From Spirogloea muscicola (taxonomy: Eukaryota > Streptophyta > Zygnematophyceae > Spirogloeales > Spirogloeaceae), in NCBI GenBank assembly GCA_009602725.1, contig WELB01000057.1, forward strand, positions 126,442 through 161,819: a DNA stretch of 35,378 bases, read 5' to 3'. Each line of letters opens with the position of its first letter. Position 1 is the first letter of the stretch. The notes below the pieces were generated by a model. That model searched no databases. It saw only the letters and a list, made by a program, of their open reading frames with translations, and was not told where the DNA came from. Position numbers and translations under genes: made by a program. This document shows, one piece after another, positions 210 through 33,109 of this stretch.

Positions 210-3200
210 ATGCCGCGCCTGAGCACGTCGCCGCCGGGCGCCTGCCCGGCCTTCCGCGCCCTGGTCGGCGACGAGCTCGGCTTCGTCAAGGGTACGGCGC
301 AGCGGCGGCGCCGCGCGAACTGCGGCGGCCATGCATCGGCGCCCTTTCTCCCTTCGGCCTCCTCAACGGGGTGCCGCCCCGCCGGCGATTGCGTGCGCAG
401 CCGTGCATTGCGGTGGCGGTGGCGGCGGCACCGGAGGCGGCGGCTCGCCAGCCGTGGTCGCCCGGTGGGGCGAGCCTCGTCGAGCGCGCGGCGTGCGGTG
501 CCTGGACGTCTGTGGCGACACGGACCTCGGGGTGAGCGGGGTGCGACCTTGACGGCAGCGCTTCCGCCCCGCAGGCAAAGAAAAGGAAGCTGCGGCATGA
601 TTGTACACGAGATTGGCAGTCCTCACATGGACAAGCGTTACCAAGCTGCTGAGATAGCACTCTTACTGCGACGGCAAAGCTGCGACGGCGTCGGCACGAT
701 GCCCGACGGCCCAGCGGCTCTCGCTCAAAGACCGCTGATCGCCTGTGGCGCGTCCGCCGTCGTTTCTCCCCAGGTGGCGGCTGTTGGGAGGCGCGACGGT
801 ACGGTGAGCCCCCGCATCCAGTGGCTGCTATGAGCTGCACTCGCCTTCCTGGAATAAGCAACGGAATTCGTCACTTATCATGGGACTTTGCGCCACGGTG
901 CTGTGCGGAGCTACTCGGACCCCGCTTCCCACCGTCGACTCCAGCACTGGTTTCGGGAGCTCTTGGGCGCCCGGCGGGCGCCAGCTCCGTCGCGAGCAGG
1001 GCTGACCAGTCGCAGGCCAGGGGAGCTGATGGTGACCCCATCCCCGCGCTGGCCTGTGTGGGCCAGGTCGAGCTCCTGGACCTGGACAGCGGCGCCACTC
1101 TCCTGAGCGCGAGCGCGCACTCCGAGGCGGAGGGCGCCCCTCTCGTCGACGACGCAGGCGGCGCCCCTGTGGCGGGAGTTCAGTTGTGGCAGCGGGGCGA
1201 ATCAGGGTGCGCAAGAAACCCATCTTCTTGTTGTGGGCGCTGATAATACCTTTTGCCGAAGCATCTGACAGTATCACGTGCCAGCCTCACGAGTAACTGC
1301 TGCACTTGCCTCCTTGCAGCCAGCTCTGCATCGTCTCCTGCACTGAGGCCGGCAAGGCCCGCTTGATGGAGGTGTCTGTCACCGGCGGCGGCGACGACGA
1401 GCTGCAATGCTCCACGGCAAAGGTGGCTGCCTCATGGCAGGTCCTGAGTGGTGGCAGAGGAGAGATTGGGAGCACGCAGCTTTCGCCCGACAGACTTGCG
1501 CTTGCTGTGGGAGGGTGAGCAACCGGCCGTCCTGCTTGCACAGTGATGGTCATAAGCTCGGCATCTGGAGCCACTGTTGAGCACAGAGTGGCGTGGATTC
1601 TAGAGCCTGGAAATGATGGTGATGGCGTTCACGACTCTGGGTCCAACAAGGGCCAGCCTCATCAGCAATTGACGAAATTTCAATCGAGCTCAACGGCTTG
1701 CAGGGATGGCGCGGACCTTGCGCTGTGGGACCTAGAGAAGCGGAGCCGGGCATGGGCTGCAAAGAATGTGAGCAACCTCTCACTGCTGGCTGGCTGATGG
1801 GCGACTGCTTAGCACAGGCGCTAGTATCACTGTGGTGCTTCTTGATAATGTGGCCCACGCCCGCCCTGGGCATCAAGTGTTTGCCCCTCTGCCAAGTAAG
1901 GAAGAGCATGGCCAAGAGTCATCCTGATATCTGGAGATCTTCGAGAAATGTTTTGGTACCTCCAATAGAAGACAGATGAACGGAGATGTGGACATTGACC
2001 CAACTCGGTATCATGACCCAATCCTGTCAAGGCCTCACTTATTAGTCTGCTGAATATTGTCCAACTCCTCCCGTATCTGCTGCACAGCCCAAGCCGGACA
2101 TGCTCGGCCTTATCCCGTCTGTGCGAGTGACCGCTATCTGCTTCACGGACCCTGCTAGACCGTCGAAGGTTGCGGTGGGGACTGGCCAGCACGAGGTCCG
2201 GCTGTATGACACTGCCAGTCAGCGACGACCCGTGTCAAGCTTCTCCTATGGGGAGGTGCCAATCAGGGCCGTCACCGCAAGTGGAGATGGATATACGTTG
2301 TACGTGGGAACAGCGGCAGGCGATATGGCCTGCTTTGACAGTCGAAATGGTGATGCCTTGTTCATGTTGGCCCATCCTTCATATATGACCATGGTCCTTG
2401 TACATTCTTCATTTCTGCTTTTGCGCCACGAGGCTAGCTGTCTAGCTTCTCCCATCAGCATCGAAGTGCAGACCTCTCAGCTGCTAACTTCTTGCTTGTC
2501 AAGCTGCCTTCAGGTAAGCTGGTCGGAGCCTTCAAGGGGGCCTGCGCTGGGAGCGTACGATCTATTGCCAAGCACCACACGCTACCCTTCATTGCATCCT
2601 GTGGTAACAACCGCCCCAAGGCTGGCTACCAACCAGCGTCTGTAGCCTACTGCATCAGCTAGCGGTTTTGACATTCGGATCTTCACTATTCCAGTCCCTA
2701 AGTAGTCCATTCTGTTGATGCCAATGCGAAAAGGCAGCAACAAGTGGGTCTTGTGCACTGTCTCACAAAGAGAGTGCACAGTCAGCTATCTAATCTGAGA
2801 AAGTGCCCTGGTCCGTATGCCTGATGTCCAGACGCCCCATGGCCTGCCCTTGTCAATGTATTGCAGGCCTAGATCGCTTCCTGCGAGTCCACAGCACCAC
2901 CTCCCGGCAGCTTGTTGCAAAGGTGATGCCCTCAGTCATCCATACAGTAGCATGCTACACCTGTCCTTGCTGAAGTCCTCTACTGTTGACTGAGCCAGTG
3001 GCCACTATTAAGACTTGCGTATGCTGACCTGCATCTGCTCCAATCTGGTTGTGCCAGGTCTTTCTAAAGCAGCACCTCGTGTCAGTCGCCTTTGACACTC
3101 GAGAGAGTGCTCCAAGTATTCAAGCTCTCACTGCTGGAGGTTTGTGCCCACCGTGCAACCTTACATTGTCATTGTCAAGGAGCTGAGCAACTCCAGAGTT

Positions 3201-3513
3201 TTTGCTCTTATCGAACTTAGTCACTGCTCCTGCTAGCAGTCTACTGCCCATGTTAAGCGACCAGCAGGCCACTCATGCAGGCGCTGCGTGACTCTTTGCA
3301 GAGAAGAAAACAGTGGAGAGCAAGCAATTGCAATTAGGTGAAGAAGTGGTGGAGGCGAAGGGAAATGCAGATAGTAGTGACGTCGATGGCAGGGTGGATA
3401 AGCGGAGGAGGGGGCCTGAGAAGCAGGGCCGGGTGATGAGGCCGAGGAGCCTGGAGGACAGGCCAAGCGGCAGCCGGCACCCGTCTCTCAGGACAGGCAC
3501 TGTGGCCTCTTGA
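210..3513 (+). CDS. WDR74: WDR74/Nsa1-like WD40 ribosome-biogenesis protein, 11 exons
   Basis: Proposed exons: 210-291, 401-531 (or from 452), 774-803, 1067-1206, 1320-1514, 1704-1767, 2088-2349, 2514-2603, 2867-2922, 3058-3139 and 3302-3513. All phases agree, giving about 447 residues. Family landmarks are clear: an N-terminal VVARWGEP, LALWDLEKRSRAWAAKN, then VAVGTGQHEVRLYDTASQRR, TLYVGTAAGDMACFDSRNG, SVRSIAKHHTLPFIASCG and GLDRFLRVHS, followed by VFLKQHLVSVAFDT. These match the WD40 repeats of WDR74 (yeast Nsa1), a nucleolar protein acting in pre-60S ribosome assembly. The C-terminus is charged and Lys/Arg-rich (DKRRRGPEKQGR), as expected for nucleolar targeting. Exon 3 is only 30 nt. The start ATG is the first in frame with MPRLSTSPPGACPAF. 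The exon 2 acceptor is ambiguous because two AGs fit the phase. Family call is firm; the first four exon borders are less so. Confidence 0.83.
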
Positions 3514-3802
3514 TCGCACACTTAGCACGACTGCTGAAATTACCCAAGCATGGAAGCCCTCCTGGATTCTAACTTCGGGAAGCTTCTTGAAGGTGAGCCC
3601 ACTTGCTGGCCCTCCCTACTCTCATCTTTGATGCTCGTTCAGGCCTGCGTGACAGTGAAGACCAAAGGCCATGGGATTGCTTGCTAGCACTGGCTCTTGC
3701 ACCCGCAAAGGAGGCAGTCTCCAATTGGAACTCACCAAAAGCGTTGAGTGGCGCTCCGCAGCGCTCCTGCTCCATAATGGGAGTCTGAGCACATACTGAG
3801 CT

Positions 3803-5466
3803 TCACTGCAAGGGTCCTGCCGACCAGGACGCGGAGGCTGGAGTTGCATGCGATGGCTGCGAACTTATGGTGGACTTCTTGCCCTCTAAGTGGTAGGGAA
3901 TGACAGGCAATAGATAGTTGCCAAAAGCCGATTCGCAGCTCCGAAAGCTACCAGTGGCGCCCATTGCAAGCGCCTTCTGGATGGTTGCCCCCAGCCGCAA
4001 CTGCACCTCTGCTCGCCGTGCCATGGCCTCCTTGGGGTCTGGCGGCCACTTGACGGGAGGAGGTAACTCTTTTTGAGGCGGTCGCACTGCCGCTGGTTCG
4101 TGCCTCCTCGCCACCTGCCAATGAGACAGACATGCCCACCCAGAGGTCAGGCAGTGAAGCCAAGAATGCTAGAGCTGCTCAAGGAAATGTTTCAGGCTGA
4201 AGTCAAGCAAGGCCAGCGACAAGTCTGGTAATGCCAGCAACAAGACCATTGCAGGAAACATTCATTCACCTCTAATCTCTTCTGGGCTGTCGGCGGTCTC
4301 AGCTCACCAGGTCCAAAAGTTTGCCTGCAAGATGTACGTGGGCTTGGCTTGGCTGAAATGTCTTATGAAAGGATCACCTTGGCAGCGTCAGCCCATTCTC
4401 TTAAAGGGGACCATTCCTTGAAGCAGACCAAGCTGAGTACGAGGTAACAAGGTTGCAGGCGTTGGCCACAAACCTGGCTCCCTCAGGCATCCGCTGGACC
4501 TTCGTCTGTGGACCTGCAGCATGCAAGCAAGCACTGCAGTTGGTTGGTTGTCACAGTGTGCAGTGTGATGCCCGTCCCAAGGTGCTGTGAATGTTTGACA
4601 GTGCTGGCCTCCACTCCTGCTGTAGTAGTAGCGCACTGCACCTTTGGCAGGACCTCCGCTGCTGCCGCTGGCGCTGCTACCGCCGCTACCACCGCTGCTG
4701 CCAACGCCAGTTCGTTGCCCAGGCCGCACTGGGGCACTGCCCGTAGGCGCCTCACCCGCAAGCCGCGGAGCAGAAGGTGTTGCGCCACCTGCTGTGAGCT
4801 GACAAGTCATCAGCACCTACATTAGCAGGACCTGGCAGCTGGAACTTTTAACTACACATATTGTACACCTGCTTTACCTCAGCTTGTTACGAGTGGACAC
4901 AACAAGCAGCAAGACTGCTGCCACCACCATACAGTCTTGCTGCATCTTGGCTGCGCCTGGCCAACGAGGACGTTGCACGTCAACACGGTGCCAGAGCAGG
5001 CTTGAGGCTCTCAGACAGCAACCACGCTGCTTTACTGTAAGCAGCTGGCAGTGTACATGCAGGAGCCTCCGGCTTCTAGAGACCTCTCTGAGGCAAGGAG
5101 ATGAAGCCCCAGCGGCAGTGGCGACGATAGTCAGCCACGCGTCTGTGAAGGCGTGTGCCTAGCGGGCTCACCGGGCTGTCGCTGCTCGGGCGCCGGGCCG
5201 GAGGCGGCGCTGCTGGCGGCAGCCAAGGCCGGGCCGGCCGCGGCGGCGCCAGCTGCGGGGGTCGGCCTNGGGCGAGAAGCCAACGCTGACGCGGCTGCTG
5301 ACTTCCATCACGCGGCCGCTGACTTCCATCAAGCTCAGCGGGGTCTTACCAGCGGCCGGCGAGCCAGTCCGGGTACGACAGCGGCCCGCTGCCGCCGCCA
5401 CCATTGCCGCCGCCGCCGCCGCCACCGCGGCCGCACCCGCCGCCGCCGCCGCAGCTGCCGCCAAGG
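3803..5466 (-). CDS. Unrecognised low-complexity protein, partial multi-exon model
   Basis: I do not recognise this protein. Four exons join with consistent phases on the minus strand: about 5466-5350 (Gly-rich, ending PLSYPDWLAGRW), 5266-5172 (Ala/Pro-rich), 4791-4642 (Gly/Ser-rich, SSGGSGGSSASGSSGGPAK) and 4513 to about 4400 (VQRMPEGARFVANACNLV). A final exon, about 4113 to the stop at 3803, encodes PPPVKWPPDPKEAMARRAEV and later SAFGNYLLPVIPYHLEGKK. The links into the last exon are not resolved: several donors fit, and a 17-nt exon near 4304-4320 is possible. No ATG is visible in the chosen frame of the first exon, so the start may lie in an alternative frame or an undetected leader. The gene would be divergent from the WDR53-like gene across roughly 370 bp. 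One unresolved base (5269) falls at an acceptor. That some gene is present is likely; the model is provisional. Confidence 0.4.
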
Positions 5467-9108: not shown

Positions 9109-9563
9109 CTAATATCCCCGAGTGAGCACATGCATATCTGACAAGCTATACTGAGGCGCCAAACCACCGCCATGGAAGCCACTAGCCTGGGCTAATGCAC
9201 ACGACCAGCACGCTGGTGAATCGCGAGTGCCTGGGAGTGCTGCAGACTTAATGATAGCCGCATCCTGTAGCATGCTACGATGGCTTGCGGGACGCTAGAA
9301 TGCCCTAAGCTACCCGCCCGACTACGTTGACGGGCATCAACATGCAGTGCCAGGCGATGGAGGAGGGAAGACCACTTCGTTCCGTAGCCGCCGTATATGT
9401 CCATGGCGCACGGGAAGAAGTGGTCGCCCCGGGGGTGGTCATTATAGTGCCTCTCCTTCTTCCTCTCCGCATGATGTGTCGCCCAACTTTGCACAGTCGG
9501 TGTGAGTGCGGCCCTGGTTGGAATAACACAAGGGTACTGAGTGGCTCTTTGTAGCGGCCACAT
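9109..9563 (-). pseudogene. Degraded retroelement ORF C-terminus, divergent subfamily
   Basis: The minus-strand frame reads ERHYNDHPRGDHFFPCAMDI, then YGGYGTKWSSLLHRLA, then YRMRLSLSLQHSQALAIHQR. This aligns with the better copy at 22.4-22.7 kb: EKKHADHPVGDEFAALAIDV, HGAFGSRWLDLLQRLA, then FRMRLAVRFQRSLAHAVHTR. After a frame change the ending continues as ALAQASGFHGGG and YSLSDMHVLTRGY-stop (9109-9111), the family terminus. Sequence identity is clearly lower than among the other copies, so this is an older insertion or a separate subfamily. It is frameshifted and 5'-truncated, hence not functional. Confidence 0.75.
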
Positions 9564-15889: not shown

Positions 15890-16149
15890 TTTTTCCCCCA
15901 GTCAGCAGCCGCAAGTCGGAGTGGCTTGCAGCTGGCACCCCGACGAGAAGTGGCTGTCCCAATGGGGGCAAGGACTGTGAGAGATAGCGCTTCCAGGTTG
16001 AGAAGCCAGCCCGAGAAGGAGTTGACAAAACGACTCCCGACGAGACCCAGAAGTAGCAGCCAAAGCGCGGCCTGCCAGCAAAGTGCAGTGCGTGAGCCTG
16101 GGATCGTTGGAAGGGAATGCGGAACACCGCATAGCCGCATGCGGAACAC
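15890..16149 (-). mobile_element. Retroelement ORF end interrupted by a tail segment
   Basis: On the minus strand the sequence reads VFRIPFQRSQAHALHFAGR, then in a shifted frame AGRALAATSGSRRESF, the family C-terminus. It is then interrupted by about 100 bp of 3'-tail sequence (TTGTCAACTCCTTCTCGGGC, TTGCCCCCATTGGGACAGCC, ACTTCT). It resumes as VPAASHSDLRLLTGG. The ORF is split between SF and PAAS, adjacent residues in the copy ending at 32158. The locus is thus composite and non-functional. Confidence 0.65.
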
Positions 16150-16199
16150 CTGGGCAAGCGACCCAGCGGCGTTGAAGCGGGGCAGCTCCCCTTGCTGTC

Positions 16200-16275
16200 C
16201 CTACCGACGATCGATGGCCTGCCGTGCAAGCGCCCTCAGCTCATCTGATTTCCTAATGCTGACACGGGAGTACAA
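16200..16275 (+). mobile_element. Possible retroelement ORF-end stub
   Basis: The frame reads ACRASALSSSDFLMLTREY, which resembles the family ending (SYSDLMLLTRGY). The homology is short, and no hairpin tail follows directly, since the next feature is a foldback. This is a weak call from one motif. Confidence 0.35.
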
Positions 16276-17700: not shown

Positions 17701-19983
17701 CTACAGCTTTGTCACTGGTCGCAGTGGGGCCGCCCCACTCCCGCTCCCCAAGTGCTTGAAAACCTCACCAACAAGGTTCTCGCCATGGCCTGCCATTCCC
17801 GTGCCTCCCCTTGCTATCTCAATCAACTCCTTTGCCTTGCAAGCCTTGCCGCACACACAGCAGCAATGGTCTTTGACTACAAATTTGTCTGCACTCAGCT
17901 CAGAGGAACTTGTCAAACGCGTAGGCAGACCTTGCTAAGAACAGGTGCTCCAGATGGTTGCTGTAATGTTTAGACTTGCTTAAACGACATCAAGTCACAA
18001 ACCAAAGATGGGCTGCGAACATAACAGCGCAGCTACAATGAGCTAGGTCTGCCTCAATGATGGTGCTCACCTGCACACTTCTTGCAGATGACGTGGCCGC
18101 AAGTGCTAACGGCAGCTAGGTATGTCGTGTTCGTGAGAGTTGTCTTGCAAGAGGGGCAGATGAATCTAGACCACAAGATAGCAGGGGTCCAGTGGTCAGT
18201 ATAGCACCCAAATACCTTGCAAACCAGTGCAACCTTACAAAGACCCAAGAAAAGGACTACACTGAAGATACAAGGTGCATGCATGAACTTGCACACAGCA
18301 AAAGTGCAACGTGTAGCACCGTTCATGTGACAATTGTGCATCCTGGCTGTACTGCAGATCTATTGGTAAAGGGCGGCAAAATCTGGCATAGGAGAAAGTT
18401 TAGTCACCAATCAGGGGAGTAAGCAGCTGCCTCCTGACCTGTCATTTGACACCACGCTACTAGGCTCTGGGTCCGGCAGCTCTGTGAATATGATTGGATA
18501 GAGGTCCTTCAGTCGCAGTTTCTCCTTGCCCTCGGGGCATACCGTGTCAGTGCTAGGAGCTTCAGCCCTCTCCACGGCCTCAGGTGTGGCTGAAGGAAGC
18601 CAGTATGCCTTCATTGTCCTGAGTGATTCCTCTTCAAAGGCTGTCGTCTTGGCGCTGCTGGCCCCATGGAAGCTGGAACTGCGGTCAACCTGGACGTGCT
18701 TCTTTGGTCATCGCTACAGGCCAACTCCAGGCAGAACTTTGGACGACAAATTTCTCAAACAAGCAAGGACCTAGATTCGAAGTGTAATTCCTAGCGGCCT
18801 GCCAAGCCCATAGCAGAAAGGCCATCTAGAGGCTGCCAAGACTGCCACTACGTATGCCCTGTCTCAGTAACATAACTGCGTTGGTTTGTGTCGATTGCAT
18901 GAATTTGGCAAGAAGGATTGACAGCTAGCGCCACTCACTTGCTTTTTGCTATCATACTCGGTCGGGACTGCGCTATTGTTTTGCCGGTCGAAGGCCTCCA
19001 GCCGGCGTTCCTTCTCAGCAACTTCAACTTCTAATTGCTCCTCCTCGTCTTGCTTTTGCTGGCTCGCAAACAATGCAAGCTTCCTGCACCAAGTCGAATT
19101 AACCTGCAAATTAAAGGCAGGCTCGCAATAACTGCAATTGGAAGGGATGCTAGCACAGAGAAAGTCTCAGAGGAAAGGTGGGCAGTATGTAGACGTCAAA
19201 ACATCCCACTGCTGATCATCTATCTTAGATCAGGCAGATGCAGATAGATCAAGGCAAACAGCTAATAACAGCACTGTACAAGGGCCAGCAAAACCATGGC
19301 CACCCAGGCGACTTGTTACGGTTGCACAGTGGGTTGCCTGGTCATGGTCTTGTGATAACAAAGGGAGGCCCTTGGCGGATAGAATAAACCTCAACCTAGA
19401 CCTGGAACCAAAACCTAAAATCAAATCCTAACCTTAATTTTACACTCTGACCCCTTGTAGTCAAACCTTAGACGATCAGTCGCGAAGTGCGGGGCGGGTG
19501 AGAGAAGAAGGTGGGGTGGTTCACGCAGCATGAAAAGCCTAGCAATGAAAAGACTAAGACACTGCCACGACATCCTCGTACTCACACAGCGTGGCAGTGC
19601 AGCTTACAACATGCAGCCTCAAGGGCCCACAAGTCAGAATTGCTGCAGAGACGCCTTCTACAAACCGAGGCTTTAGCCTGTGGAGCGGCACCACGACAGG
19701 GCGGCCCGCGCGAGGAAGGGGCGAAGCAAGCAAGCAGGCCTCACTTCTTGATGCCCTTCTTCTGGTGGAGGAGGCACTCGTAGATGCACTCCTTGCAGAA
19801 GACGTGGCCGCGGCGGCAGGCCAGCGGCTCCAGCAGGCGCTGCAGGCAGAGGCAGCAGGCGTCGAACTGCTTGATGGAGTCCTTGCCCAGCCGCTCGCGC
19901 TGGCTCCCGAACCCCAGCTTCCGCTTCTCCTCGTACGTGAAGATGGCCAGGTCATTGTTGTTGCGCGAGTGCCGCTGCGGCAT
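17701..19983 (-). CDS. NOSIP: NOSIP/CSU1-type RING E3 ubiquitin ligase
   Basis: Five exons: 19983-19745, 19083-18939, 18689-18439, 18165-18071 and 17888-17701, giving 305 residues with every phase consistent. The N-terminus MPQRHSRNNNDLAIFTYEEK followed by FDACCLCLQRLLEPLACRRG and HVFCKECIYECLLHQKK is the NOSIP N-terminal split U-box/RING half. A central coiled-coil, Lys/Glu-rich segment follows (KQDEEEQLEVEVAEKERRLE), then CPEGKEKLRLKDLYPIIFTE. The C-terminal half has FICPSCKTTLTNTTYLAAVS, TCGHVICKKCADKFVVKDHC and CCVCGK. The end, GGTGMAGHGENL and FKHLGSGSGAAPLRPVTKL, matches the plant orthologue CSU1. Family members are spliceosome-associated ubiquitin ligases; plant CSU1 targets COP1/SPA proteins. 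Intron 1 (19084-19744) holds a telomere-like degenerate repeat. Confidence 0.95.
19385..19440. repeat. Degenerate AACCTA-rich tract in NOSIP intron 1
   Basis: The plus strand reads AACCTCAACCTAGACC, AAAACCTAAAATC and AAATCCTAACCTTAA, a loose array of AACCTA-type words. It resembles eroded telomere-like or polypyrimidine sequence but has no exact TTTAGGG tandem. Confidence 0.35.
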
Positions 19984-20109
19984 GGTGCCCCGCAAGGTGG
20001 CGCGCGAGGCGCAGCGCAGGCGCCTCCTGGGCAGCGGCGGCCGCTGCTCTCGGCGGCAGAGGCCGCGGCCGCGGGGCGCGCGGGCGAGCTTTCGGGAAGA
20101 CGGCAGGCC

Positions 20110-20520: not shown

Positions 20521-20579
20521 AGACAACCAGACTTCTGTGAGGCGGCCTTCCTGGGAAGCTGGGCGCAGGTGGCCGCCCC

Positions 20580-20897
20580 CATGTGTCAGAGGTTCCTCGT
20601 GCACGGACAACGAGAGAAGGAGCTCGCCCATTGAGAATATGGGCTGGAACAGCCAGCCCAAAAAAGAATGAACAGAGTACAAGAAGAGGGGGGGGGAAGC
20701 CAGGCGAAGCCCTAAGGCGAAGCAGCAGAAATGACAAGCACACAAGAAAAAACAAAGCAGCTACTAACCACTCAGTAACCCCTGCTAAGCAGGCGCAGGT
20801 CGGAGAGGCTATGCTCCTGGAAGTATGTCCCCTGGCCAGAGCCAGAGGCAGCAGCAAGGGCTCGGCCAGCACGCAGGTGCAGCGCACGGGCCATGGA
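20580..20897 (-). pseudogene. Retroelement copy 1: ORF C-terminal end plus 3' tail, cut by gap
   Basis: Minus-strand coding runs from the gap edge to the stop at 20772-20774: MARALHLRAGRALAAASGSG, then QGTYFQEHSLSDLRLLSRGY-stop. This aligns directly with the plus-strand copy at 22.65-22.75 kb. The 3' UTR continues leftwards to the stem GGGCTGGAACAGCCAGCCC (20641-20659), followed by CATATTCTCAATGGGCGAGC on the minus strand. The visible ORF part is intact; the rest lies in the assembly gap, so activity cannot be judged. Confidence 0.8.
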
Positions 20898-21701
20898 NNN
20901 NNNNNNNNNNNNNNNNNNNNNNNNNNNNNNNNNNNNNNNNNNNNNNNNNNNNNNNNNNNNNNNNNNNNNNNNNNNNNNNNNNNNNNNNNNNNNNNNNNNN
21001 NNNNNNNNNNNNNNNNNNNNNNNNNNNNNNNNNNNNNNNNNNNNNNNNNNNNNNNNNNNNNNNNNNNNNNNNNNNNNNNNNNNNNNNNNNNNNNNNNNNN
21101 NNNNNNNNNNNNNNNNNNNNNNNNNNNNNNNNNNNNNNNNNNNNNNNNNNNNNNNNNNNNNNNNNNNNNNNNNNNNNNNNNNNNNNNNNNNNNNNNNNNN
21201 NNNNNNNNNNNNNNNNNNNNNNNNNNNNNNNNNNNNNNNNNNNNNNNNNNNNNNNNNNNNNNNNNNNNNNNNNNNNNNNNNNNNNNNNNNNNNNNNNNNN
21301 NNNNNNNNNNNNNNNNNNNNNNNNNNNNNNNNNNNNNNNNNNNNNNNNNNNNNNNNNNNNNNNNNNNNNNNNNNNNNNNNNNNNNNNNNNNNNNNNNNNN
21401 NNNNNNNNNNNNNNNNNNNNNNNNNNNNNNNNNNNNNNNNNNNNNNNNNNNNNNNNNNNNNNNNNNNNNNNNNNNNNNNNNNNNNNNNNNNNNNNNNNNN
21501 NNNNNNNNNNNNNNNNNNNNNNNNNNNNNNNNNNNNNNNNNNNNNNNNNNNNNNNNNNNNNNNNNNNNNNNNNNNNNNNNNNNNNNNNNNNNNNNNNNNN
21601 NNNNNNNNNNNNNNNNNNNNNNNNNNNNNNNNNNNNNNNNNNNNNNNNNNNNNNNNNNNNNNNNNNNNNNNNNNNNNNNNNNNNNNNNNNNNNNNNNNNN
21701 N
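20898..21701. other. Assembly gap (804 N)
   Basis: A run of N from 20898 to 21701. Retroelement ORF ends face outwards on both sides, minus strand to the left and plus strand to the right. The missing sequence therefore lies within the bodies of two head-to-head copies, and the true length may differ from 804. Confidence 0.99.
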
Positions 21702-22748
21702 CCCCTTCCAAGTCGCCCTCCGCACTGCCCGCGACAGGCTCCTGCAGGTCCACCCCAACATGTCCGAGCAGACTGTTCCTTTCCGGCACCTCGCCCACAC
21801 TCCAGACCTGCGGGCTCAGGCACGCTTCACGGCGTTGGTCGAGAAGGCGGCCTCCGACCAGGCGGTGGAGCTTCTCCCTCCGTCTGACGTTCGCGGGCGT
21901 GCTCGGCTTCTCTCCGCCTCTTCCCCTGGGGCGGCGGCGTGGCTCCAAGCGCTCCCACTCTATGCCGCACTTACCATGCCCGACGAGGTCTACCGGACGG
22001 CGGTGCATCGGCTCTTGGGGCTCCTCCCTCCCTGCCTTACAGGTGTCACACAGTGCGAGTGCGGCGCCCGGCACGCCGACCCTGCGGAGCTGGCCGCGCA
22101 CATGCTCCGTTGCGCCCACGGAGGCGAGAGGACCGCTTCCCATGATCTTTTGCGCGATGGTATGCAGGGGGTGTTCATAGAGGCGGGCTTCAAGGTGGCG
22201 GTGGAGTGCTCCTCAGTCATGCCCATCCTGCGGGGCGAGGACGGCCGGTCGCACACCCGACGCGCCGACCTGGTCGCTATCCCGCCCGGCGACGGTCCCC
22301 GCATCATCGCTGATGTGGTGACAACGGACAGCTACGACTCCGGCAACCCCACCAGGTCGGCGTCGTTTGCAGGGCATGCGGTAGGCCTGGCAGCCCGGGC
22401 AAAAGAGAAAAAACATGCCGATCACCCGGTCGGTGATGAGTTCGCGGCCCTGGCGATAGATGTTCACGGGGCCTTCGGCAGCCGCTGGCTGGATCTCCTC
22501 CAGCGGCTTGCTCGTCAGGCTATTGATCGGCGGTCGGGTCCGCCCGGGCGCTGCCCGGCTTCAACGCCGCCGGGTCGCTCGCCCAGGTCTTTCGCATGCG
22601 CTTGGCGGTAAGGTTCCAGCGATCCCTTGCCCACGCTGTCCACACGCGCGCAGGACGCGCTCTGGCCGCTGCCTCCGGGTCTCGGCGGAGTGCCTCCTTC
22701 CCTGCCTCGAGCTACTCGGACCTGATGTTGCTCACCCGCGGGTACTGA
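21702..22748 (+). pseudogene. Retroelement copy 2: C-terminal ORF with knuckle and RLE-like motif, frameshifted
   Basis: About 300 residues are readable from the gap edge. The order is: a region ending ASSPGAAAWLQALPLYAAL; a Cys/His knuckle CECGARHADPAELAAHMLRC; GGERTASHDLLRDGM; then RRADLVAIPPGDGPRIIADV, in which two Asp are spaced by 13 residues within an R-x-D-L context; then HPVGDEFAALAIDVHGAFGS and RWLDLLQRLARQA. A knuckle followed by D-x13-D matches the C-terminal layout of R2-type non-LTR retrotransposons (restriction-like endonuclease, RLE). The frame breaks near 22535-22560 and terminates at 22611. The shifted frame carries the true end: GFNAAGSLAQVFRMRLAVRF, HTRAGRALAAASG and SYSDLMLLTRGY-stop (22746-22748). 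The reverse transcriptase domain would lie in the gap. Family assignment is inferred from motifs only. Confidence 0.75.
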
Positions 22749-22890
22749 GCTTCCCTAGTATGTTGTCGTGATTGGTAGAGTAGAGGAGTCCTTCCTCGGC
22801 ATCTCATTCTTCGGCTTTGGACATTGTCCATTCTTTTTTGGGCTGGCTTTGCCAGCCCCTCTTTCTCTATGGGAGAGCCTTCTTCTGTTG
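22749..22890 (+). mobile_element. 3' UTR and stem-loop tail of retroelement copy 2
   Basis: After the stop come about 80 nt of UTR and then GGCTTTGGACATTGTCCATT, itself a small palindrome. The best stem of the family follows: GGGCTGGCTTTGCCAGCCCC (22840-22859), then CTCTATGGGAGAGCC and TTCTTCTG. The same order recurs after the ORF stub at 32665, which defines this as the element's own 3' end. Confidence 0.75.
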
Positions 22891-23309
22891 TCGCAGGAAA
22901 GGCTTGACAGATGCCTGGAGACCGGACACTTCACCAGGAGGAGGCGGCAGCTTTGTGGACTACCTTAATGGCAGCAACAGTGGTCGTCGATGTTAACGTG
23001 GATATCAGACCGCTCATGCTACCCCGTTGTCAGTGGAATGTCAGTTGCTATTGACGGGGCATTGCCGGGGACTGTCAGTATGAACCGCAAGCGCGCCAGA
23101 TTGACGTACGGCGGTGGTGGCCGACCGATGGGGAGGATTGCCGGTGGTCGACTGCCGATGGCATTCGACAAGTCATGGACGGGTAGTTAACGGGAGAGTG
23201 TTGGTGCCAACTTTAGCAACACGGGCTGGTAGGGCCGTGACGCGAGGAGACGCGCAGTCCGTTGGGCTATCCAGGTCCATATTCCCCACGTTCTGACGTA
23301 GCATCTTCA
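22891..23309. other. Inter-element spacer, no gene recognised
   Basis: No recognisable coding frame, hairpin tail or RNA gene. The short frames present show no family similarity. Confidence 0.5.
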
Positions 23310-23445
23310 GGCCCCTTCGTCGCTGCTAAGCGCTGTAGGCCCCTGCGTCATTTGGCCTCTTCGAACCTTTGTCAACTCTTTTCGGGCTGCCTTTACACAG
23401 CCCTTGCCCCCATTGAGAGTGCCACTTCTTCTATATAGGGGGAAA
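23310..23445 (+). mobile_element. Retroelement 3' tail
   Basis: TTTGGCCTCTTCGAACCTTT and GTCAACTCTTTTCGGGCTGC are followed by CACAGCCCTTGCCCCCATTG and AGAGTGCCACTTCTTC (to about 23431). This is a clean example of the tail consensus, with the CTTCTTC end and no ORF part. Confidence 0.65.
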
Positions 23446-23991: not shown

Positions 23992-26900
23992 CTAGTTGAC
24001 AGAAATGGGCTCGCCTGCCTTCTCCACAGTAAAGAAATCTTGAAGAGCCATCATCTCAATGGGCGACTCAATCAGACCCTGGATGGCTTTCAAATTTGCC
24101 TGGGCAGCTGCAATTGTTGTGACCACAGGAATCTGCAAATGACGGGGCATTACTTTGAGATACCAATACACAATCAACAGTTACGAGAGCACAAGACCTG
24201 CAAAGCTGCTCGCCTCTACAAACTCTTGGAATACTTGACATGCGGATTTTGCTTGTCACTGACCCTGCTTGACTTCAATGTGATTGCTCCCTGAAATGCA
24301 TCGCTAGCAAAACTGACCTTGTACGCCAAGGCGGAGCGCCTGAGGAAACGGCCATCCTTTCGGTCGAGCTCGTCACCAGACGAAGTAATGAGGAGCATTT
24401 GGATGTCACCATTTGCAACCATGTCTCCAGCATGAGGCCGTCCCTCGTGGAGTTTGAGGACTCTCTCTACAGGCACTCCAGCTTTCTCTATTGCTGAAGC
24501 AGTGCCGCCCGTGGCTAAGAGCTTGAAGCCCAGCTCGTGGAACCCCTTGGCAATGGGTAGCACCTGTGCACATGGTCAGAAGCGCAGGTGAATATGGCAG
24601 ACCTGTGCCCACTGACAGCCTTGGTTGTGCAGAAACTTATACAAGATTCTGCAATGGCAGCTGAAAGGAGACAGAATGCTTACCTTCTCCTTGGTTTGGT
24701 CGTTCATGGAGATGAAGATGGAGCCAGAGAGGGGCAGCCGTTGGAATGCAGCAATCTGTGCCTTTGCAAAGGCCTTCGAGAAAGTTCTGTCAATGCCCAT
24801 GACCTCTCCTGTGCTGCGCATCTCCGGCCCCAACAGGACATCGGCCCCAGGGAACTTCTCAAAAGGAAGAACAGCCTCCTTGACAGCCACATGATCTGGA
24901 ATCACTTCCTTGGTGTAGTTCAAGTCATGCACTGCAGATGCGGATGAGCAGAGGTTGATCAGGCAATGCTCCAGCACAATCAGGCAAGCGCGCAAGAGTA
25001 TCATTTCAGTATAATCTGAAAACTTCATTCAAGTTCTCAATGTCCCACCTTGAGACTTCATATACTACAGATCTGCTCACCTTTCTTCCCAGACATCACC
25101 AAGGATGCATACTTTGCCAAGGGGTGTCCAATGGCTTTGCTGACAAAGGGTACCGTCCTTGATGCCCTGGGGTTGGCTTCAATAATGTAACAGTCACCAT
25201 TTTGCATGACTGCATACTGGCAATTCATGAGCCCCACCACATTCAACTTCCTTGCAAGCTTGACTGTCCAGTCTCTGATGATTGTCAAGGCCTCTTCGCT
25301 GATGGTTTGTGTCGGTATCGAGCAGGCAGAGTCACCAGAATGTACACCTGCCTCCTCAGTGTGCTCCATAATCCCACCAATCACCACATTCCCATCGTGG
25401 TCCGCCAATGAGTCCACATCGAGCTCAGTGGCTCCCTGCAGGAGAAGATAGAATTAGGAGCTAGTAGCACTGCGAAGCTCTTGTGGCGCAGGAAATTGGT
25501 TGAGTGCAGATCGGATGCTAAAATGCATGTGATTTGGCCAACTATGCATGATTGCAGTCCCTAGCGACCTTTATGTTTTGACCCGTGGTTACTGAGCGGG
25601 TCACTTTGCTGTAGATTATGTAGGTCTTTAGATGTGCTTGCCTTTGTACTTGGCCTTTGGCCTTCGTTTGTTTCATATACACGAGATCTTTCTCTAAGGG
25701 GGCATCAAGTAAGCAGTCCATGAAACTGGATATGATCATATAATTACCGTAATAACCACGGCCAGCCTCAACGAGCTGCAGGCGCAAGCTGGACAAAGCC
25801 CTTAGCACAAGTAGGATTACTCACAATGAGATATTTGTCAACAAGGACAGGCCTCTCTGGGTCCACCTCCACAGCGGTCACCAGGTACTTCTTCAGGGCA
25901 GCATCGCTGTAGACAATCTCCATGGCCCTTCCTCCCAGGACATACGATGGTCGTACCACAACAGGATAGCCCACTCTTTCTGCCACTGCCAATGCATCTT
26001 CCTCGCTCCTGGCAATACCGCCTGTACATCCATAAGCAGAAAGAATGAAATCTAGATAAGAGAGTGAGATAATAGTGGATGAGAACAGGACGAAAAGCTA
26101 CCAGTTGACAACATCCTATTTACTATGCCCGTGCAACATGGGGACTGCAAGCTGTCAAGGATCTCTGACCTGGTGGTTGCTTGATGCCAAGCTCATTGAG
26201 CATGGCCTCGAAGCGCTTCCGATCTTCAGCAGCATCGATGGAGTCCGGTGATGTACCCCAAACCTTCACAAGGCCTTTTCCACTTGAAGAAGGAATTTGA
26301 TTCTTGTCGAGGTATTGTTGGATGGGCAGAGCAAGTTTCAATGGCGTCTGCCCGCCAAACTGCAATGACCTCACCAATGACAGCGCAAGGTCAGGCATGA
26401 GCTTTTCTATATCTCCAAATGATTACAAATGCACATGGACTGCTATGGGCAAGAGTGTGCCACTGCGCAAGCATGTGACAGAAGGGGCTGACACCTAAAA
26501 GTGGACCACTTACCTGCACAATGATGCCATCTGGACGTTCCAGATCAATGACATTGATTACATCCTCAACAGTCAAAGGCTCAAAGTAGAGACGGTCACT
26601 TGTGTCATAGTCAGTAGACACAGTCTCAGGGTTGGAGTTCATCATAATAGTCTCGAAGCCAGCAGCCTGCATCACATTCAAAGCCTTGCAAACATCAGGT
26701 ATATCAATCATGTATTGCAAAGCTGCACAGCTGTGTTGATCGAAAGACAGGAGTGGATATATGACAGCAGGTCAATGAAGCAGGAGACATAATCAGATGC
26801 AGCGACCCGTAGAACAGGGCACTCTTGAGAGGCCAAGAGCTCAAGTAAAGCTCTGAAGCAAGTAAGCCTTACCTGCAGCGCAAATGAAGCATGGCAACAG

Positions 26901-31809: not shown

Positions 31810-32158
31810 CTCCCACTACCACTCCATTCTTATCGGGCAGGCCTCTGCCAGCCCCATTTCCTTCTTTGGCCTTTCCCAGCCACCAGTCAATCTGGCCGCG
31901 CTTCCCCTCTTTGCACTAACTTTTGCCTGAACAATGTATCGCCTGGAATGTATTGGCTGGCCCTTCACTGGCTAGGATGGGCCACCCTTTCAATTCATGC
32001 GCACTGCGCGCCTTGTCTCCCACCGTCAGCGGTCCATGGCCCACGCTCTGCATCTGCGTGCTGGCCGTGCTCTTGCTGCGGCCTCCGGCTTTCGTCAGGG
32101 GGATAGTTTTCCGGCAGCTAGTCTGTCGGATCTGAGGCTCCTCACTCGTAACTACTGA
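31810..32158 (+). pseudogene. Retroelement remnant: tail, internal fragment and ORF C-terminal end
   Basis: Starts with a tail-like TCTTATCGGGCAGGCCTCTG (31828-31847) and CCAGCCCC. Then comes CCTGAACAATGTATCGCCTG, shared with WDR53 intron 5. Coding follows from PFQFMRTARLVSHRQRSMAH through ALHLRAGRALAAASGFRQGD and SFPAASLSDLRLLTRNY to the stop at 32156-32158. The last 50 codons are open and well conserved. The piece is 5'-truncated and lies upstream of the CARB start (31577). Confidence 0.75.
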
Positions 32159-32381
32159 TTAGATCCATCCACCCCCTGATCTGACATAGCATCTTCCTAC
32201 CCCTTTGTAGCTGGGAGTGCCACTTCTTCAATGGGGGCAAGGGCTGCGAAAACAAAGTTTCGGAGGGTGCCTACAAGCGTGTAGCAGCTACAAAGGGGTA
32301 GGAAGATGCTATGTCAGATCAGGGGGTGGATGGATCTAATCAGTAGTTACGAGTGAGGAGCCTCAGATCCGACAGACTAGC
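32117..32381. repeat. Perfect 97-bp inverted repeat with 71-bp spacer
   Basis: The left arm 32117-32213 and right arm 32285-32381 are exact inverse complements. The left arm starts GCTAGTCTGTCGGATCTGAG and ends CCCTTTGTAGCTG. The arms contain the retroelement ORF end (SLSDLRLLTRNY-stop) and about 55 nt of 3' UTR. The spacer holds GGGAGTGCCACTTCTTC and a GGGGGCAAGGGCTGCG word, both tail sequences. Perfect arms point to a very recent event, or to an assembly artefact of opposed copies. Confidence 0.85.
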
Positions 32382-32389
32382 AGGCACTC

Positions 32390-32885
32390 CCGTTGGGAGT
32401 GCCACTTCTTCTTCTGTCACGCGTGCACTGCGGCCAGGCCGCACTACGTAGCTGCTTTGTTTCTTTGTGTGCTTGTTTTTCCCACCCCCTACACATGTAT
32501 ACGTGCTTGCTTCCGTACTTGGCCGCCCTTATTGCTCGATACTATGTCCGTTCTTTCTGGGCTGGTCTGTCTACAGCCCCTGCCTTATTTTGGACGAATG
32601 TGGCTCTCCCAACGGCTTTCCCTGCAGCGAGCTACTCTGACTTGATGTTGCTCACTCGTGGGTAATGAGCTTCCCTCTGCATCGTCTCGTGTTTTGTAGT
32701 GTAGTCCTCTTTCGGCACCTCTTTCTTTGGCTTTGGACATTGTCCATTCTTTTTGGGCTGGCTTTGCCTGCTTTTCTTCTCTATGGGCGCGCACTTTCTC
32801 CCAAAAGGGGGCAAGGGCTGTCAACAGCCAGCCCAAAAAGTTCGACAAAGTCCGAAGCGGCCAAAGAGCGCTGTCTCAGAGCTTG
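32390..32885 (+). mobile_element. Composite: tail, ORF-end stub, 3' UTR and opposed tail
   Basis: In order: GGGAGTGCCACTTCTTC (32394-32410); CTTTCTGGGCTGGTCTGTC and TACAGCCCCTGCC (about 32552-32584); the stub FPAASYSDLMLLTRG-stop (about 32621-32667); UTR with GGCTTTGGACATTGTCC; GGGCTGGCTTTGCC (32756-32769); CTCTATGGGCGCGC. A minus-strand stem then follows, GGGCTGTCAACAGCCAGCCC (32816-32835), with the rest of an opposed tail. A tail immediately before an ORF-end stub repeats the arrangement at 15.9-16.1 kb. Confidence 0.65.
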
Positions 32886-32902
32886 GCCGGTAGGATGAAG
32901 CA

Positions 32903-33055
32903 CTAGTAAGCACGAGTGAGGAGCCGCAGATCAGAAGAGTAGAGCCGGAAAGCAAACCCCTGACGAAAGTCAGAGGCTGCAGCTAGAGAACGGCCAGCAC
33001 GCAGATGCTAGGCGTGGGCCACGGACCACTGGAGTGAGATGGAGAGGCGCACACT
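32903..33055 (-). pseudogene. Retroelement ORF-end remnant
   Basis: On the minus strand: SVAHA, an in-frame stop, then HLRAGRSLAAASDFRQGFAF and SSDLRLLTRAY-stop (32903-32905). It is nearly the same sequence as the copy ending at 32158 but with an internal stop. It faces leftwards, opposed to the plus-strand copies beside it. Confidence 0.7.
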
Positions 33056-33109
33056 AAGGACCTGAAGATTCTTCCTTCACAGCCATAGCTACTTTGAAGA
33101 GCTTCACTC

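What the first reader, a model, noticed from the sequence alone, without database searches (positions are those of the whole stretch)
21702..22748. Algal non-LTR retroelement with knuckle and RLE-like D-x13-D C-terminus
The ORF end combines a Cys/His knuckle, an R-x-D-L ... D motif with 13-residue spacing, a downstream conserved block (GDEFAALAIDVHGAFGS) and an almost invariant terminus SDLxLLTRGY-stop. The knuckle plus spaced Asp layout is that of R2-type elements, which use a restriction-like endonuclease and are often site-specific. The conserved tail block after the endonuclease may mark a distinct clade.
Basis: partly seen in the sequence, partly recalled or inferred. Interest (0 to 1): 0.75.

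Follow-up and report, generated by a model that had tools for sequence, protein, structure and literature searches.

The report
Self-nesting R2-like algal jumping gene
This is the broken tail end of one copy of a common green-algal jumping gene that encodes an R2-type cutting enzyme, and copies of these elements tend to lie inside the tail ends of their relatives.

Summary
21702-22748 is the 3' part of one 5'-truncated, broken copy of a non-LTR retrotransposon in a 153 Mb green-lineage genome. Near-identical intact copies elsewhere (4.31 kb, 1,358-residue ORF) carry two C2H2 fingers, a reverse transcriptase closest among solved structures to R2, a Cys/His knuckle, and a C-terminus with the published motif pattern of restriction-like endonucleases (RLE). 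The spacing is D-x14-D. The 'tail block' is the end of the RLE fold. The terminus lies in another frame here (one-base deletion). Filling the gap would not reveal an RT, because this copy starts downstream of it. Two features may be lineage-specific: a CxCx11-12Hx3C knuckle, and a C-terminus SD-x3-L-[TS]-RGY kept at protein level between families whose synonymous sites are near saturation. New here: 33 of 41 insertions lie within 15 bp of a sibling element's 3' end, against 102 of 367 points in the same flanks and about 9% of arbitrary sequence. No rRNA gene was found in the 40 insertion loci scanned. I file it as a new variant of RLE-type LINEs, clade unassigned.

The parts
20534..20612 (+). 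5' piece of the same family-A copy (element bases 3005-3083); the 5'-truncated start of this copy
   Evidence: 98.7% identity to intact copy L001
20613..20897 (-). 3' end of a sibling element inserted antisense into the family-A copy, running into the assembly gap; C-terminus SDLRLLSRGY-stop near 20804
20898..21701 (.). assembly gap (804 N); hides about 42 bp (element bases 3084-3125) of the family-A copy and, by inference, the rest of the antisense sibling
21702..22886 (+). 3' part of the family-A copy, element bases 3126-4310, 98.6% identical to L001
21934..21957 (+). AAWLQALP linker motif (position of R2's KXRINALP)
   Evidence: motif described in PMC5678591
22054..22113 (+). zinc knuckle C-x-C-x12-H-x3-C
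22138..22488 (+). restriction-like endonuclease: H (SHDLLRD), E of strand 1, D-x14-D (in 22258-22320), KEKKH (22402-22416; KEKKY in L001-L003), beta4 and G-x-x-W block (22432-22488)
   Evidence: hallmarks from PMC5678591
22547..22549 (+). one-base deletion in a G run relative to intact copy L001; breaks the frame
   Evidence: place read from the printed sequences; a run, so approximate
22554..22748 (+). C-terminal helix region and terminus SDLMLLTRGY-stop (22716-22748), out of frame with the RLE in this copy
22749..22886 (+). 3' UTR; hairpin GGGCTGGC-GCCAGCCC; the element ends at about TTCTTCT with no poly(A)

Best explanation
The region is the 3' end of a dead, 5'-truncated copy of a single-ORF LINE with N-terminal C2H2 fingers, an R2-like reverse transcriptase and a C-terminal restriction-like endonuclease. 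[quoted passage not shown] Insertions fall preferentially into the 3' ends of sibling elements, in either orientation, which builds nested clusters. Shown by sequence: domains, catalytic residues in intact copies, near-identical copies, 5' truncation, duplications above shuffled controls, the enrichment at sibling 3' ends. Inferred: recent activity, RNA recognition, order of nicking, and that the enrichment comes from target choice by the protein rather than from base pairing or survival of insertions.
For: Intact ORFs in L001-L003; L002 and L003 are 99.9% identical to L001 over 4.3 kb. RVT_1 in families A, B and F. Family profile against PDB finds R2 proteins at 1.8e-13 to 2.4e-11, retron-type and group II intron RTs from 2e-4, LINE-1 ORF2 from 0.025 (an entry named only RNA-directed DNA polymerase at 0.013). 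RLE residues invariant in the six sequences of A3 as defined in PMC5678591. Shared 3' end without poly(A). Target duplications of 5 bp or more in 16 of 41 against 7% of shuffled flank pairs. Insertion point within 15 bp of a sibling 3' region in 33 of 41 against 102 of 367 local control points; spanned by one alignment in 18 of 41 against 68 of 367. Arbitrary background 2,146 of 23,707 readable bases.
Against: The RLE part alone matches no solved structure and no Pfam family (also none over the C-terminus), and the single-sequence fold was of no use (mean pLDDT 42.5), so the RLE rests on motif correspondence. The knuckle spacing differs from the published CX2-3CX7-8HX4C. Of the 41 sites 8 are not near a sibling 3' end (2 of 22 A, 6 of 19 F), and no target sequence is strict: nearness to any hairpin within 20 bp is not enriched (10 of 41 against 170 of 722). 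Family F junctions start with pyrimidine-rich bases (0.90 against 0.50), so base pairing or untemplated tails may contribute there. Duplications of 4 bp or more were found in only 21 of 41, and 16% of shuffled pairs reach that length. The arbitrary background is uneven (four readable stretches, most matches in two).
Confidence: 0.8

Rival explanations
1. No target choice: the elements insert anywhere, and nesting only reflects that 3' ends of relatives are abundant in repeat-rich compartments where insertions survive.
For: Sibling 3'-end matches cover about 8% of sampled DNA (1,863 of 23,707 readable bases in arbitrary stretches; 2,753 of 34,571 in the window), and coverage declines slowly over hundreds of bases around insertions, so clusters exist.
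Against: Controls taken 400-1400 bp away in the very same flanks give 28% against 80% at the insertion points.
Confidence: 0.15
2. The nested junctions arise mainly by template jumping of the RT from one RNA to the 3' end of another, or by recombination between copies, not by targeted insertion.
For: R2 RT is known to jump between templates (title in the reference list printed). In some sites the upstream flank ends at or near a sibling's own 3' terminus (L008 and L047).
Against: In 18 of 41 sites one sibling sequence continues across the reconstructed empty site, some in antisense orientation, with target duplications above shuffled expectation.
Confidence: 0.1
3. The lineage is a Dualen-type element (known from green algae, with APE and RLE) that lost or never had its APE domain, so it is not a separate RLE-only lineage.
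For: The LINEs named for core-Reinhardtinia algae in the passages read of PMC8226300 are L1-type and Dualen.
Against: No APE match in Pfam scans of the family A and B proteins and of the longest family F frame; the N-terminus is Pro-rich with C2H2 fingers, as in R2 and NeSL. No RT tree could be built.
Confidence: 0.2

Closest known systems
R2 (R2Bm, R2Tg) and the R2 superclade
   Same: Single ORF with N-terminal C2H2 finger(s), RT, linker LP motif, Cys/His knuckle and RLE motifs D..D and KX2KY; structured 3' UTR; 5'-truncated copies. R2 proteins are the best solved-structure relatives of the family profile.
   Different: No rRNA gene at the insertions scanned; knuckle spacing CxCx11-12Hx3C; conserved C-terminus SDxxxL[TS]RGY; insertions enriched at sibling 3' ends with loose specificity.
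NeSL/Utopia and HERO clades of RLE LINEs
   Same: One to three N-terminal fingers, central RT, C-terminal knuckle and RLE; loose specificity as in HERO and some Utopia families (PMC4640811, passages).
   Different: No U2 or rRNA gene in the 40 loci scanned (one U5 gene lies about 70 bp from one insertion); clade membership not testable here.
Dualen LINEs of green algae
   Same: An RLE-bearing LINE known from green algae (PMC8226300, passages; APE plus RLE from PMC4640811).
   Different: Dualen also has an APE endonuclease; none was found here.
Zepp / ZeppL (L1-type LINEs of Coccomyxa and Chlamydomonas)
   Same: Nested or tight clusters of green-algal LINEs (PMC3446292 and PMC8226300, passages).
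   Different: Zepp is L1-type and forms one cluster per chromosome in Coccomyxa; here an RLE lineage lies nested on many contigs, with insertions enriched at siblings' 3' ends.

Membership tests
RLE-type LINE | non-LTR-type reverse transcriptase | tested here: met
   RVT_1 2.5e-13, 1.1e-14, 6.5e-19 in families A, B, F; R2 proteins best in PDB
RLE-type LINE | C-terminal PD-(D/E)xK variant with D..D and catalytic K in KX2KY | tested here: met
   D-x14-D and K-x2-[KH]-Y in 6 of 6 sequences of A3 (hallmarks from PMC5678591). The motif is xD, not PD. Window copy has KEKKH. Motif level only; searches gave no support from profiles or fold.
RLE-type LINE | CCHC-type knuckle between RT and RLE | tested here: met
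   C, C, H, C invariant in 6 of 6
RLE-type LINE | published knuckle spacing CX2-3CX7-8HX4C (a usual, not a defining, property) | tested here: not met
   CxCx11-12Hx3C in 6 of 6
RLE-type LINE | strand-4 and GxW end of the RLE fold | tested here: inconclusive
   A-x-D-x2-G-x2-G-x2-[W/F] in 6 of 6, W in 5: a counterpart with spacing G-x-x-W; the fold itself was not obtained
R2 clade | insertion in 28S rDNA | tested here: not met
   No rRNA match at gathering score in 40 insertion loci
R2 clade | RT phylogeny within R2 | not testable with these tools
   No reference sequences of the LINE clades available
R2 clade | 5' HDV-like ribozyme (recalled) | tested here: inconclusive
   No such Rfam match in L001 and L002 up to E=5; only these two loci were scanned that way
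Dualen | APE endonuclease plus RLE | tested here: not met
   Pfam scans (E up to 1) find no APE domain in family A and B proteins or the family F frame
Utopia | U2 snRNA gene target | tested here: not met
   No U2 in 40 loci; one U5 gene near one insertion

The most novel reading that the evidence does not exclude
A lineage of RLE-only LINEs in green algae whose protein is specialised, with a lineage-specific C-terminal tail (SDxxxL[TS]RGY) and altered knuckle, to land in the structured 3' ends of its own relatives. Each insertion breaks the recognition end of an older copy and supplies its own, so the families would compete by replacing one another's 3' ends while sparing host genes.
Probability: 0.3. 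Interest if true: 0.75.

Novelty: new variant of a known kind. Interest (0 to 1): 0.5.

Why it matters
RLE-type LINEs are usually known for hitting fixed host repeats such as rDNA, and R2 is now used to insert genes. An abundant RLE lineage in an alga that prefers its relatives' 3' ends would show how such elements loosen or shift target choice, how a small genome tolerates many copies, and would offer a natural test of whether the RNA-recognition end doubles as a landing site. The conserved C-terminal tail gives a defined handle for mutagenesis.

Tried and rejected
Palindrome targeting: I asked whether insertions lie close to hairpins (stem of 6 or more). Within 20 bp it was 10 of 41 against 170 of 722, not enriched, so I dropped the idea that the RLE simply reads cruciforms. 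Only the looser median distance differs (41 against 80, p=0.003), as expected if sites lie in 3' ends that contain a hairpin.

A fixed target motif: 13 of 41 insertions lie next to the tail landmark (TATGGGCGAGC or CATTGGGAGTGCC, up to 3 mismatches) against 119 of 1,129 controls, a hot spot but not a strict site. At least three of the 13 (L007, L022, L047) are loose matches to other sequence.

Pyrimidine tracts as the sole cause: seen at family F junctions (0.90 against 0.50) but not family A (0.55 against 0.52, p=0.34); the F boundary is ambiguous.

Covariation of the outer 3'-UTR stem: 14 mutually dissimilar 3' UTRs give a two-helix consensus. One family group differs in both arms (GTCAA/GTGAA with ATTGGG against GTCCA/GTTCA with ATGGG), but the shuffle control did not settle it (observed 3.52, shuffled mean 3.10, maximum 3.93).

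Structure prediction from the window sequence alone failed. The C-terminus found nothing in Pfam or PDB; no relatives in IMG/VR or GTDB contigs. No HDV-like ribozyme match. Locus L038 was fetched for a 5' end but does not reach it.

Dropped before counts: 53 distinct insertions were defined (32 family A, 21 family F), 41 had readable flanks on both sides. L004 (the window copy again) and L013 (same place as L003) were left out beforehand. L002 was not counted because its own 3' end stops at the hairpin; by eye it lies in a sibling 3' end. One of five arbitrary background stretches (L064) was all N. The rRNA scans covered 40 of the 50 loci behind the counts; L001 was scanned, where all ten listed matches lie in one palindrome.

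Full report
What was checked. The window lies at G000:C57:126442-161819 of a 153,112,186-base genome in 471 contigs. Matches to RuBisCO small subunit at four places point to a green-lineage photosynthetic eukaryote (established knowledge: rbcS is nuclear there).

The observation. One frame of 21702-22748 contains the knuckle (22054-22113), the R-A-D-L...D stretch (22258-22320) and the GDEFAALAIDVHGAFGS block (22432-22488); the terminus SDLMLLTRGY-stop (22716-22748) is in another frame. Compared with intact copy L001, the window copy lacks one base of a G run near 22548. The two Asp are 14 residues apart. The window copy also reads KEKKH where L001, L002 and L003 read KEKKY.

What it is. A protein search of the window's genome listed 142 matches (a lower bound by the tool's own note), 25 of them, the window's own included, over the full query at 97-100% identity without a stop. 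Three copies were fetched: L002 and L003 are 99.9% identical to L001 over 4.3 kb, and each holds an open frame to the same terminus. From the first in-element ATG the L001 protein has 1,358 residues: C2H2 fingers at 140-160 and 318-338, RT motifs from about 574 to 862 (YADD from 792), WLQALP in 1088-1095, knuckle 1128-1147, RLE from about 1156 to 1272, terminus 1349-1358. Pfam reports only RVT_1 (2.5e-13; also in families B and F). The window copy begins at element base 3005 (window 20534), after the RT, is interrupted at 20612 by an antisense sibling, and resumes at 21702 (element base 3126); the gap hides about 42 bases of it.

Families. Diverged relatives were found: A2 (L036), B (L034, L035), F (L039), E and H (both in L041). 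Searches with the tails of F and E each returned the maximum of 150 scored matches, so copy numbers are unknown but high. Over the C-terminal 288 residues the families are 41-81% identical to family A. Invariant in 6 of 6 sequences of that alignment: C, C, H, C of the knuckle; H-x-L-L-R at the first helix; E of the first strand; D-x14-D; K and Y of K-x2-[KH]-Y; A-x-D-x2-G-x2-G (followed by x-x-W in 5, x-x-F in family F); S-x-S-D-x3-L-T-R-G-Y at the end.

Reading the motifs. Mahbub et al. 2017 (PMC5678591; passages seen) describe for RLE LINEs an LP linker motif, a CX2-3CX7-8HX4C knuckle, an RH or H at the first helix, D/E at the end of strand 1, a PD..D core whose catalytic K sits in KX2KY, and a GxW just beyond strand 4. 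Each has a counterpart here, with three departures: the knuckle is CxCx11-12Hx3C, the core reads xD rather than PD, and GxW is G-x-x-W. Hence the 'conserved block after the endonuclease' is most simply the end of the RLE fold. What follows it (a helix RMRLxxSLQRSxAxAxHxRAGRA and the SDxxxL[TS]RGY terminus) is not in the passages read and may be lineage-specific; a text search for LLTRGY found 0 papers, which says little. Across families A, B, E, F, H the last ten codons have pS 0.77 and pN 0.20, against 0.74 and 0.37 over the whole C-terminal alignment, so the terminus is kept as protein rather than as DNA.

Relation to known proteins. A single family-A protein finds nothing in PDB. A four-sequence profile finds only two R2 proteins below 0.001 (8.9e-5 and 1.5e-4). 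The seven-sequence profile finds R2 proteins at 1.8e-13, 5.8e-12 and 2.4e-11, retron-type and group II intron RTs from 2e-4, and LINE-1 ORF2 from 0.025. This favours an R2-like RT among solved ones; it is no phylogeny. The RLE part alone finds nothing.

3' end. The family-A copies compared end at, or within a few bases of...ATGGGCGAGCCTTCTTCT with no poly(A); L002 stops earlier, at the hairpin. The 3' UTR RNA folds better than shuffles (z -2.56; 4 of 200 shuffles as good). Fourteen mutually dissimilar 3' UTRs share a hairpin GGGCUGG/CCAGCC enclosed by a stem between (U)GUYCAU and AUGGGCG; covariation support is weak. A structured, unpolyadenylated 3' end fits R2-type TPRT (inference).

Target sites. 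From 48 of the 50 loci brought in by 3'-end searches (family A; family F) plus L001, L003 and the window, 53 distinct insertions were defined (32 A, 21 F); 41 had both flanks readable (22 A, 19 F). With a library of 145 sibling 3' regions (30 bases before the stop to 170 after), same-locus entries excluded, 33 of 41 insertion points lie within 15 bp of a match, against 102 of 367 random points 400-1400 bp away in the same flanks (odds ratio 10.7, p=6e-11). One alignment spans the reconstructed site in 18 of 41 against 68 of 367 (p=5e-4). By family the 15-bp count is A 20 of 22 (controls 51 of 195) and F 13 of 19 (controls 51 of 172). In arbitrary stretches 2,146 of 23,707 readable bases meet the 15-bp condition, unevenly between stretches; in the window 3,339 of 34,571. 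Spanning matches occur in both orientations. Target duplications of 5 bp or more occur in 16 of 41, against 7% of shuffled flank pairs. A recurrent position is the junction between hairpin and tail (13 of 41 against 119 of 1,129). Eight sites are not near a sibling 3' end. The window copy was not in the 41 because the gap hides its flank at 21702; its true start (20534) lies 63 bases from the nearest library match, so it does not itself meet the 15-bp rule. No rRNA gene was found in the 40 loci scanned; one U5 snRNA gene lies about 70 bp from the L015 insertion.

Mechanism. Best supported: TPRT by an R2-like protein with loose preference for sibling 3' ends. Whether protein recognition, RNA-DNA pairing or survival causes the preference is open. 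For family F pyrimidine-rich junctions suggest pairing or untemplated tails; for family A they do not.

Known and new. RLE LINEs are known for target specificity, and transposons are among the targets listed for target-specific LINEs (PMC4640811, passages). Nested algal LINEs are known as Zepp and ZeppL, L1-type (PMC3446292; PMC8226300; passages only). Non-site-specific R2-like elements are known in cockroach (PMC7650587, passages). Searches of the held open-access papers for RLE LINEs in algae or with nesting (listings only, three of them empty) showed no description of such a lineage. Subscription papers and Repbase are not covered, so this does not show it is unreported.

Changes on checking: the LINE-1 E-value, the count of 25 (the window included), the scope of the Pfam and Rfam scans, and the status of the GxW row were corrected.

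Noticed in passing
window 9112-9512 (-), 16037-16231 (-), 31867-32213 (+), 32618-32873 (+), 32883-33064 (-), 23276-23432, 25566-25700: Other short 3' ends of sibling families lie in the window; sibling 3'-end matches cover 2,753 of 34,571 readable bases, about 8%.
   Followed up: partly
L015 1097-1208 (+): A U5 spliceosomal RNA gene (93.3 bits) lies about 70 bp upstream of a family-A insertion.
   Followed up: no
L001 7003-7167: A GC-rich inverted repeat resembles several microRNA precursor models below their gathering scores; probably a plain long palindrome.
   Followed up: no
L041; loci L008, L021, L025: Copies stacked head to tail or tail to tail, for example a family E frame opening about 100 bases after the stop of family H in L041.
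   Followed up: partly
window 19741-20000 (-): A short Cys-rich reading frame looks by eye like a zinc-binding end of a host gene just upstream of the nested elements; not searched.
   Followed up: no
family F 3' ends, L043-L062: Bases after CACGAAAT vary between copies and are pyrimidine-rich, as if untemplated nucleotides were added before or during priming.
   Followed up: partly
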